From Hydrogenophaga sp. (GTDB taxonomy: Bacteria > Pseudomonadota > Gammaproteobacteria > Burkholderiales > Burkholderiaceae_C), in contig NZ_JAHBZK010000008.1 in assembly GCF_019635465.1 (NCBI RefSeq), positions 124,001 through 188,000 of the forward strand: a stretch of DNA of 64,000 nucleotides, given 5' to 3'. Position 1 is the first letter of the stretch. Each line of letters opens with the position of its first letter. The notes under the pieces were generated by a model, which was given only the letters and a program-made list of their open reading frames with translations, was not told the DNA's origin and did not search any database. Made by a program: the position numbers and the translations under genes. Positions 5,005-9,246 of this stretch are shown in pieces.

Positions 5005-6674
<1,670 letters not shown>

Positions 6675-6723
6675 ACAGCTGCGTTCAGTGTTGAGCTTTC
6701 GGCGCTGAGCGCACCTTGCGCAG

Positions 6724-7000
6724 CTAGGGATGATCTGCGCGACCCCCGCCCTGCGCGTTCGGGTCCACAACGGGATGGATGGCGTGCCTGCTTGGCGCCG
6801 TGTGTGCCGGTGGCACACACAAACCAACAGGTGCGTCAGACGCCCGTTGTGGGCCGAACCCGAAGGGCCGCGATCTGGCGGGCGATCCGCTGCGTTGCGA
6901 ATGCGGGCAAGCCGTCCAGGCTTGCCCTGGCATTCGCGCCTTGCGGCTCATCCCGCCAGATCGCGGCGCGCACGGCGCGGGTCGCGCAGAGCATCCCTAG
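6724..7000. repeat. 277-bp inverted-repeat (MITE-like) element with two internal arms
   Basis: The ends 6724-6757 and 6967-7000 are inverted repeats, identical at 31 of 34 positions, and both begin CTAGGGATG. Inside are two further paired regions. Arm 1 has stem 6765-6774 with 6843-6852, capped by hairpin 6800-6808/6812-6820. Arm 2 has a perfect 16-bp stem 6867-6882/6952-6967, capped by 6897-6913/6919-6937. The whole folds as an outer stem with two branches. There is no transposase and no convincing gene inside. The right end supplies the stop codon of the HNH gene. It fills the gap between argG and the HNH gene. Confidence 0.7.
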
Positions 7001-7554
7001 GCGTGCAGCCGCGACGTCTTGGGCAAGTGCGCCATCAGAAACTCCATCTGGTCCGCCAGGATGCGGCGGTTGCGCAAGATGAAGTCCTCCCAGAGGCTGG
7101 GCACGTAGGGCGTGTACAGCAGCGGCATGTGCGCCTGCTCCGGCGTGCGGTTGGCCTTGCGGTGGTTGCACGACTTGCACGCCGTCACCACATTCATCCA
7201 CACATCGCGCCCGTTCTGTGCCAGCGGCACGATGTGCTCGCGCGTCAGGTGCTCTTCGTGAAAGTGCGCGCCGCAGTAGGCGCACACATTGCGATCGCGC
7301 GAGAACAACTTCTGGTTGGTCAGGGTCGGGCGCAGATCGAAGGGGTTGATGCGGGGCACCCCTTGCGTGCCGATGATCGAATTGACCGTGACGATCGACT
7401 GGCGCCCGGTGACCGCGTTGTGGCCCCCGTGAAAAACCGCGATTTCGGCGCCCATCTCCCAGCGCACCTCATCGGCCGCGTAATGCAACACGGCTTCTTC
7501 GAGGCTGATCCAGGACTGAGGCAGCCCCTGGGCCGAGAGCTTCAAGACCTTCAA
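6997..7554 (-). CDS. HNH endonuclease family protein
   Basis: This protein of about 185 residues has a Cys4 zinc site (CAYCG and CKSCN) around an HNH core: REHIVP, then WMNVV, then CNHRK. HNH domains cut DNA, but the cellular substrate of this family is unknown. I chose the TTG at 7554 (MKVLKLSAQGLPQSW) because GAAGGAG sits just ahead and the sequence before it does not look conserved; a longer TTG frame reaches 7644. The stop TAG lies inside the right inverted repeat of the 6724-7000 element, so that element abuts or has replaced the 3' end. The gene faces argG and is divergent from the TPR gene. Confidence 0.8.
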   Translation of the reverse strand: MKVLKLSAQGLPQSWISLEEAVLHYAADEVRWEMGAEIAVFHGGHNAVTGRQSIVTVNSIIGTQGVPRINPFDLRPTLTNQKLFSRDRNVCAYCGAHFHEEHLTREHIVPLAQNGRDVWMNVVTACKSCNHRKANRTPEQAHMPLLYTPYVPSLWEDFILRNRRILADQMEFLMAHLPKTSRLHA

Positions 7555-7641
7555 AACCGGCTCCTTCGTGCAGTCAAGACATCGGAAGTGCCCGTGCCAA
7601 CTGGGTTGGCGCGGGGCCTGCGTTTTCGTGTGCCAATATAA

Positions 7642-7697
7642 CAAGGTCTTGCGACGATTGACTTACGGTCGGGCAAGACAGATAACCCACGGCTATC
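7642..7697. repeat. 56-bp direct repeat, copy 1
   Basis: This is identical over 56 bases to 9110-9165. It contains the inverted pair GTCTTGC (7646-7652) and GCAAGAC (7673-7679). It lies between the divergent HNH and TPR genes. The following bases, 7698-7840, share weaker similarity with the bases after copy 2 and hold further short inverted repeats: AGCAAC/GTTGCT at 7716/7776, and a hairpin at 7729-7751. Confidence 0.9.
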
Positions 7698-7918
7698 AGA
7701 GGGCATGTGTTGGGGAGCAACGACACGTGAGGCGAGTAACTCGCATGCCTCAAGGCACAGCCGAGGCTTTAACCGGTTGCTGTCACCACCAATGCACACA
7801 AACACACGGAGCCACTGGCAGACTCCGGTGACTCATCGTGAAAGACGCTGTGGGTAGGGAAGCCCGACAAGCGCACTGCGCTGACGGGAACTGCAGAAAG
7901 ATTCAGAGGGAGCGACTC
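7698..7918. other. Gap before the TPR gene, with short inverted repeats
   Basis: No gene is supported here. An open frame in phase with the TPR gene begins at 7838 but lacks a ribosome site and would push the signal peptide inward. The segment holds hairpins near 7729-7751 and 7759-7768, closed by AGCAAC/GTTGCT. A good ribosome-binding sequence, AGAGGGAG, precedes the ATG at 7919. Confidence 0.5.
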
Positions 7919-9085: not shown

Positions 9086-9109
9086 GGCCAGGATGCCTTG
9101 AAAACTTAT

Positions 9110-9165
9110 CAAGGTCTTGCGACGATTGACTTACGGTCGGGCAAGACAGATAACCCACGGCTATC
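9110..9165. repeat. 56-bp direct repeat, copy 2
   Basis: This is a perfect copy of 7642-7697, 1468 bases downstream in the same orientation, starting 24 bases after the TPR stop. The two copies frame the TPR gene exactly. Immediately after it is a branched palindrome (9170-9246). Confidence 0.9.
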
Positions 9166-9169
9166 GGGG

Positions 9170-9246
9170 GTCATCTGTTTGCGTTGCGCGACACTCCAAA
9201 GGGGTGTCAACGCCCGTCGAGGCTCGACGTGTAGTGACCAGATGAC
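9170..9246. repeat. Branched palindrome after the 56-bp repeat
   Basis: The outer stem GTCATCTG (9170-9177) pairs with CAGATGAC (9239-9246). It encloses a hairpin at 9181-9213 (GCGTT/AACGC extended by GACACTCC/GGGGTGTC, one G-T pair) and a second, perfect 7-bp hairpin CGTCGAG/CTCGACG (9215-9229). The layout is an outer stem with two arms, as in the elements at 6724-7000 and 9814-9869. Confidence 0.6.

What the first reader, a model, noticed from the sequence alone, without database searches (positions are those of the whole stretch)
6724..7000. 277-bp palindromic element with 34-bp inverted ends and two internal arms
The two ends match at 31 of 34 positions as inverted repeats, and two separate long stems are nested within (including a perfect 16-bp stem at 6867-6882/6952-6967). 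No transposase or gene explains it. Its right end carries the HNH stop codon, so it sits exactly at that gene's 3' end. A structured RNA or a non-autonomous mobile element are both possible; CTAG at both ends could be a target or a cut signature.
Basis: seen in the sequence. Interest (0 to 1): 0.7.

Follow-up and report, generated by a model that had tools for sequence, protein, structure and literature searches.

The report
Branched palindromic IS5-type mini-transposon (MITE)
The 277-base palindrome is a small piece of jumping DNA without genes of its own, most likely moved by a known type of transposase; here it sits exactly on a gene's stop signal without harming it, and its mirror-image halves tend to change together.

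Summary
The element is 269 bp (6728-6996) between two CTAG copies. One strand folds into a Y: outer stem plus two arms (z -14 as DNA, -15 as RNA). Three more near-full copies (90-96% identical) lie in the same genome, others in relatives. For one own-genome copy, 19 of 19 orthologous sites fetched from other genomes are empty. The ends resemble those of roughly 1.2-kb IS5-type insertion sequences of the same genus, which also insert at CTAG. It is best read as an IS5-type MITE akin to MITEPsy1; movement is inferred, and no transposase was found in this 88%-complete genome. The target was the HNH gene's own TAG stop. Whether stop codons are hit more often than the YTAR target predicts is unsettled: controls disagree. 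Pairing is conserved (49 of 100 pairs with double changes) with a weak lean to one strand. In this genome paired changes separate even 96%-identical copies, which fits template-switch correction (inferred); close pairs elsewhere do not show it.

The parts
6724..6727 (.). left target-site copy CTAG
   Evidence: YTAR at 41 of 76 family junctions
6728..6756 (+). left terminal inverted repeat / outer stem, 5' side
   Evidence: 13 of 18 end bases shared with the nearest IS5-type end
6757..6859 (.). arm 1 (first internal hairpin of the Y)
   Evidence: consensus structure of 17 copies; the repeat finder I5; boundaries read by hand from the alignment
6869..6965 (.). arm 2 (second internal hairpin; the perfect 16-bp stem 6867-6882/6952-6967 is its base)
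   Evidence: boundaries read by hand from the alignment
6968..6996 (-). right terminal inverted repeat / outer stem, 3' side
   Evidence: 14 of 18 end bases shared with the nearest IS5-type end
6997..7000 (.). right target-site copy CTAG; its minus-strand TAG (6999-6997) is the stop codon of the HNH frame
   Evidence: in 29 of 29 orthologous loci fetched the protein ends at the same residue followed by a stop
6997..7644 (-). HNH endonuclease-like gene whose stop codon holds the insertion (neighbour, not part of the element)
5343..6674 (+). argG-like gene, convergent neighbour, ends 53 bp before the element (not part of it)
   Evidence: the gene name is recalled, the start is approximate

Best explanation
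It is a non-autonomous mini-transposon (MITE) of the IS5 type. An IS5-type transposase supplied in trans recognises the terminal repeats and inserts the element at a YTAR (mostly CTAG) target, which is duplicated (movement in trans is inferred, not shown). Here the target was the TAG stop codon of the HNH gene; because CTAG is duplicated, the gene kept its stop. Between the ends the element carries no gene of its own that I could recognise but two long hairpins, so one strand folds into a Y. Ends and arms keep pairing while their letters change. In the closest copies of this genome the paired changes come together, which fits correction of one half of the palindrome from the other during replication (template switching; inferred).
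For: Four near-full copies in this genome; some match in 17 of 99 other relatives and 15 of 398 other family genomes, many of these short or weak. Flanks unrelated among the nine copies aligned. Empty sites: for copy L004, 19 of 19 orthologous loci fetched from other genomes lack it; 29 of 29 HNH orthologues fetched, of 61 other genomes with a match, lack it. A pattern of the end is found in 35 of 67 genus genomes (own one included), against 1 hit in all for the reversed control pattern, often as inverted pairs about 1.17-1.21 kb apart; one such IS encodes a protein with PF01609 and DUF772; the G027 IS and one G025 IS have CTAG on both sides. Own copy L002 shares 17 of 18 end bases with the G043 IS; L013 shares 17 of 18 with the G027 and G008 ISs. 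11 of 29 both-ended copies have YTAR on both sides, 8 of these with identical 4-mers: six CTAG, one CTAA, one TTAG. 49 of 100 consensus pairs show double changes; among own-genome copies 3 double changes against 0.25 expected (L001/L002) and 2 against 0.06 (L003/L004), permutation P about 0.0004 each.
Against: The own genome shows no DDE_Tnp_1 match and no match to the G043 transposase, though it is an 88%-complete draft. Of nine other element-bearing genomes searched, four have no PF01609 match either. The window copy's own ends match the nearest IS end at only 13-14 of 18. 21 of 29 both-ended copies lack identical flanking 4-mers, and the 8 of 11 identical among YTAR/YTAR copies compare with about 5 expected from letter frequencies alone (hand count), so the duplication is only weakly shown. 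Concerted change is seen only in the own-genome set: L156/L157, L159/L160 and L145/L152 have 8, 5 and 10 one-sided and no paired changes, and L150/L156 and L150/L157 have 1 and 2 double changes, as expected by independence.
Confidence: 0.87

Rival explanations
1. A structured RNA (3' UTR element, sRNA or bidirectional terminator) that is kept for its function.
For: Very strong folding and abundant compensatory changes. The plus-strand consensus fold is more stable than the minus-strand one (-138.0 against -114.3 kcal/mol) and G-U outnumbers A-C on the plus strand: 111 to 34 in the plus-strand fold, 45 to 28 in the 82 pairs predicted from both strands. In 22 of 76 junctions the element abuts the stop of a facing open frame.
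Against: Only 16 of 29 copies fold better on the plus strand; no Rfam match, no terminator-like site; orthologous loci lack it; arms are missing or extra in several copies (L137, L033, L152).
Confidence: 0.08
2. Insertion is targeted to, or strongly retained at, stop codons as such.
For: 22 of 76 junctions fall on the stop of an open frame of at least 90 codons facing the element; in L014, L033, L140 and L156 both sides do. YTAR junctions do so more often (17 of 41) than other YTAR sites in the same neighbourhoods (20 of 132, P 0.0008).
Against: YTAR sites elsewhere do so as often: 14 of 42 sides in the window without the element, 30 of 64 in HNH-ortholog loci, 5 of 8 in the L004-ortholog loci, pooled P 1.0. 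Neighbourhoods of intergenic insertions may be rich in non-stop YTAR sites, so that control may be biased, as may the others in their own ways. Long open frames also arise by chance at 67% GC.
Confidence: 0.15
3. The paired changes reflect selection for matching ends and hairpins in active source copies, not template switching.
For: Matching ends help transposase binding (general knowledge); close pairs in other genomes change one-sidedly.
Against: Paired changes also occur in the arms, away from the ends, between 92.6-92.9% identical copies (pairs 48/131, 155/264, 158/261), while one-sided changes in the comparisons among own-genome copies number 1 to 4.
Confidence: 0.4

Closest known systems
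MITEPsy1 of Pseudomonas syringae (PMC3189936, passages read)
   Same: Gene-less; 18-nt end GGAAGGTCTGAAAAAGCC shares 16 of 18 with the G250/G333 copies; 4-nt duplication of CTAG or YTAA; its authors think the IS5-family ISPsy2 transposase moves it; trapped while transposing.
   Different: 100 nt; the passages I read describe no two-armed branched palindrome and no variants with different ends on one core.
IS5-family insertion sequences with CTAG targets
   Same: End sequence and target.
   Different: They encode a transposase (open frames of 320-373 aa); the element does not. Internal sequence was not compared systematically.
Other bacterial MITEs with folding transcripts (Correia, QMITE, Chunjie, ERIC; review PMC10969869, passages read)
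   Same: Small, bounded by inverted repeats, folding, with truncated copies.
   Different: The review calls MITEs typically AT-rich; this one is GC-rich with IS5/CTAG-type ends.
Template-switch-maintained hairpins (PMC8794818, abstract and start of the text read)
   Same: Double substitutions that keep a stem paired.
   Different: There in RNA genes; here in a mobile palindrome, where it would rewrite both transposon ends.

Membership tests
IS5-type MITE | short, no transposase gene | tested here: met
   269 bp. Mechanical ORFs of 60 aa or more within or across it (75 aa within; others, such as 303 aa at 6730-7641, run through the neighbour on the other strand) were not searched against families
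IS5-type MITE | terminal inverted repeats matching an autonomous IS5-type element | tested here: met
   17 of 18 for own copy L002 and for L013; the window copy itself only 13-14 of 18
IS5-type MITE | autonomous partner in the same genome (usual, not strictly required) | tested here: not met
   none found in the 88%-complete draft; candidate partners are in other species of the genus
IS5-type MITE | 4-bp YTAR target duplication | tested here: inconclusive
   CTAG/CTAG at the window copy; identical 4-mers in 8 of 29 both-ended copies; among 11 YTAR/YTAR copies 8 identical against about 5 by chance (hand count)
IS5-type MITE | dispersed copies and empty sites | tested here: met
IS5-type MITE | movement in trans by the transposase | not testable with these tools
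   needs a transposition assay
REP/BIME with RAYT | 20-40 bp palindromes with a GTAG or CGTC tag | tested here: not met
   269 bp with IS5-type ends at CTAG; definition from the search listing of PMC3733652
REP/BIME with RAYT | RAYT transposase partner | not tested
   no search run
Rfam RNA family | covariance-model match | tested here: not met
   6000-7800: two matches up to E 1, RsmW 21.4 bits (cut-off 52) and Mcr7 17.1 bits (cut-off 380)
intrinsic terminator | G+C-rich stem followed by a T run | tested here: not met
   0 found in 6500-7200

The most novel reading that the evidence does not exclude
A single two-armed palindromic core travels under several IS5-type transposases, because template switching between its mirror-image ends rewrites both terminal repeats together; the palindrome is thus a device for switching transposase specificity. 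One relative (L017) keeps the arms under an entirely different outer stem.
Probability: 0.2. Interest if true: 0.65.

Novelty: new variant of a known kind. Interest (0 to 1): 0.4.

Why it matters
Abundant compensatory change is usually read as proof of a functional RNA; here it occurs in what looks like a mobile DNA palindrome with only a weak strand lean. Four copies in one genome, and relatives with other ends, make it testable whether correction of the palindrome lets such elements change transposase.

Tried and rejected
Plasmid and phage collections: no match. Viral contigs with an arm-2 pattern: 0. Genome contigs with a strict arm-2 pattern: 2 stretches, whose contig lengths equal those of G047:C76 and G032:C144. 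Rfam, promoter and terminator scans: nothing above cut-off. Flip/flop of the core against the ends, as in T-shaped viral hairpins: not seen by eye in the 17 aligned copies. Strand asymmetry as a sign of RNA function: weak and partly built in, since the counts lean to the strand on which the structure was predicted. A partner IS for the outer stem of L017: only what looks like a chance hit outside L017. The first argG comparison used a wrong reading frame; redid it: among the 30 HNH loci fetched argG lies beside HNH only in the own genome, so a two-sided empty site for the window copy could not be shown.

Full report
Observation. The element proper is 6728-6996 (269 bp); CTAG stands on both sides. 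As one strand it folds into an outer stem of about 29 nt a side and two long arms (6757-6859 and 6869-6965). None of 200 dinucleotide shuffles folds as well (z -14.2 as DNA, -15.3 as RNA).

Copies. The own genome (29 contigs, 88% complete) has four near-full-length copies, the window's and three at 96, 92 and 90% identity, and one place with a single end (L063). Of 99 other relatives 17 had a match at E 0.001 or better, of 398 other family genomes 15 (that search scored two candidates per genome, and several matches are short or one end only). I compiled 47 loci in 13 genomes of five genera with at least one readable end. Not compiled: L131 and L143 (partial), and the weak matches in ten genomes each. 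In G333 some single ends at contig edges may be two ends of one element. 29 loci have both ends: 47 nt (ends only, L137), 163-246 nt (nine, arms shortened or lost), 269-292 nt (eighteen), 405 nt (further hairpins, L152).

Mobility. Flanks of the nine full copies aligned are unrelated. For copy L004 I joined its flanks: 57 of 67 genus genomes match, own one included; 20 places were fetched, and the 19 from other genomes hold a continuous gene pair with a short spacer and no trace of the element. Places that matched in two pieces were not among these. I looked at three of them (G028, G023, G025): no element, but other inverted repeats stand in that gap. The own copy lies on the CTAA that is the stop of the upstream gene; G022 has CTAA there too. 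For the window copy, 62 of 67 genomes have an HNH match and 30 loci were fetched; the other 29 end at the same residue, with TGA in 21 and TAG in 8, and have no element. argG is beside HNH only in the own locus of these 30, so the empty site is one-sided.

Partner. A pattern of the end with up to two mismatches hit 35 of 67 genus genomes, own one included; the reversed control pattern gave one hit in all. Many hits are inverted pairs about 1.17-1.21 kb apart. The G025 one encodes a 373-aa protein with PF01609 and DUF772; the G043 one has a 320-aa frame, the G027 and G008 ones 331-aa frames, judged similar by eye. The G027 IS and one G025 IS have CTAG on both sides; others differ at one side. 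Own copy L002 shares 17 of 18 end bases with the G043 IS; L013, of another end type, shares 17 of 18 with the G027 and G008 ISs; the G250/G333 type is nearest to MITEPsy1, 16 of 18. So members with related arms carry the ends of different IS5-type elements. The own genome has no PF01609 match and no match to the G043 transposase; of nine other element-bearing genomes five have PF01609 matches. For the L125 end type (best 14 of 18), the G442 type (12) and the L017 stem (6) no good partner was found (for L017).

Target. 41 of 76 junctions have YTAR. 11 of 29 both-ended copies have it on both sides and 8 of these have the same 4-mer (six CTAG, one CTAA, one TTAG); about 5 of 11 would be expected from the letter frequencies alone (my hand count). 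The duplication is thus consistent but weakly shown.

Stop codon. At 22 of 76 junctions the stop of a facing open frame of at least 90 codons falls exactly on the junction; for YTAR junctions it is 17 of 41. YTAR sides in the window outside the element: 14 of 42; in the 29 HNH loci: 30 of 64; in the 19 L004-ortholog loci: 5 of 8; pooled P 1.0. In the element loci themselves, outside the element: 20 of 132, P 0.0008 (earlier version). So the coincidence is no more than YTAR sites of other chromosomal stretches show, but more than YTAR sites of the same neighbourhoods show. I leave it unsettled; a duplicated CTAG in any case lets the genes keep their stops.

Pairing. In an alignment of 17 of the 29 both-ended copies (12 shortened, enlarged or interrupted ones left out) 49 of 100 predicted pairs show double changes. 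Strand lean is weak: the plus-strand consensus fold is more stable (-138.0 against -114.3 kcal/mol), G-U exceeds A-C 45 to 28 in the 82 pairs predicted from both strands, but 16 of 29 single copies fold better on the plus strand. Between own-genome copies double changes exceed independence: 3 against 0.25 expected (L001/L002, 95.5% identical), 2 against 0.06 (L003/L004, 96.3%), permutation P about 0.0004 each, and 6 to 8 against 0.5 to 0.9 in the other four comparisons. By contrast L156/L157, L159/L160 and L145/L152 show one-sided changes only, and L150 against L156 and L157 no excess. I read this as template-switch correction in this lineage and plain decay elsewhere; selection on source elements is a live rival. 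Template switching as a source of double substitutions is described in PMC8794818 (abstract and start of text).

Verdict. An IS5-type MITE with an unusual branched palindrome: a new variant of a known kind. In the literature searches I saw no description of this family, but I saw only listings, passages of two papers and the abstract of a third; the Polaromonas genome paper cited for MITEs was not held.

Noticed in passing
L002 1317-1521 (minus strand; own genome G000:C6, beside 86381-86655): One copy of the element is inserted at CTAG in a hairpin of what looks like the first aptamer of a tandem glycine riboswitch (RF00504: intact second aptamer 60.4 bits; interrupted first one 28.2 bits, below its cut-off of 32).
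   Followed up: partly
window 7639-7726 and 9107-9194: An 88-nt direct repeat (86% identical) flanks about 1.4 kb; nature unknown.
   Followed up: no
L152 808-1212 and L145 1-405 (G333): Enlarged 405-nt versions of the element with further hairpins inside the arms; several G333 copies lie at contig ends.
   Followed up: partly
L017 1473-1742 (G032): Same two-armed core under an unrelated outer stem; no other copy of that stem in 67 genomes apart from one apparent chance hit.
   Followed up: partly
L004 (own genome G000:C10 54167-54445): A copy lies between two co-directional genes (acyl-CoA dehydrogenase-like and glutathione transferase-like, names recalled) exactly on the first gene's TAA stop.
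   Followed up: yes
L226, L227, L228 (G028, G023, G025): The same gene gap holds other, unrelated inverted repeats in three further species: a long palindrome in G028 and short repeats of the kind TTCGACAAGCTCAGG in G023 and G025.
   Followed up: partly
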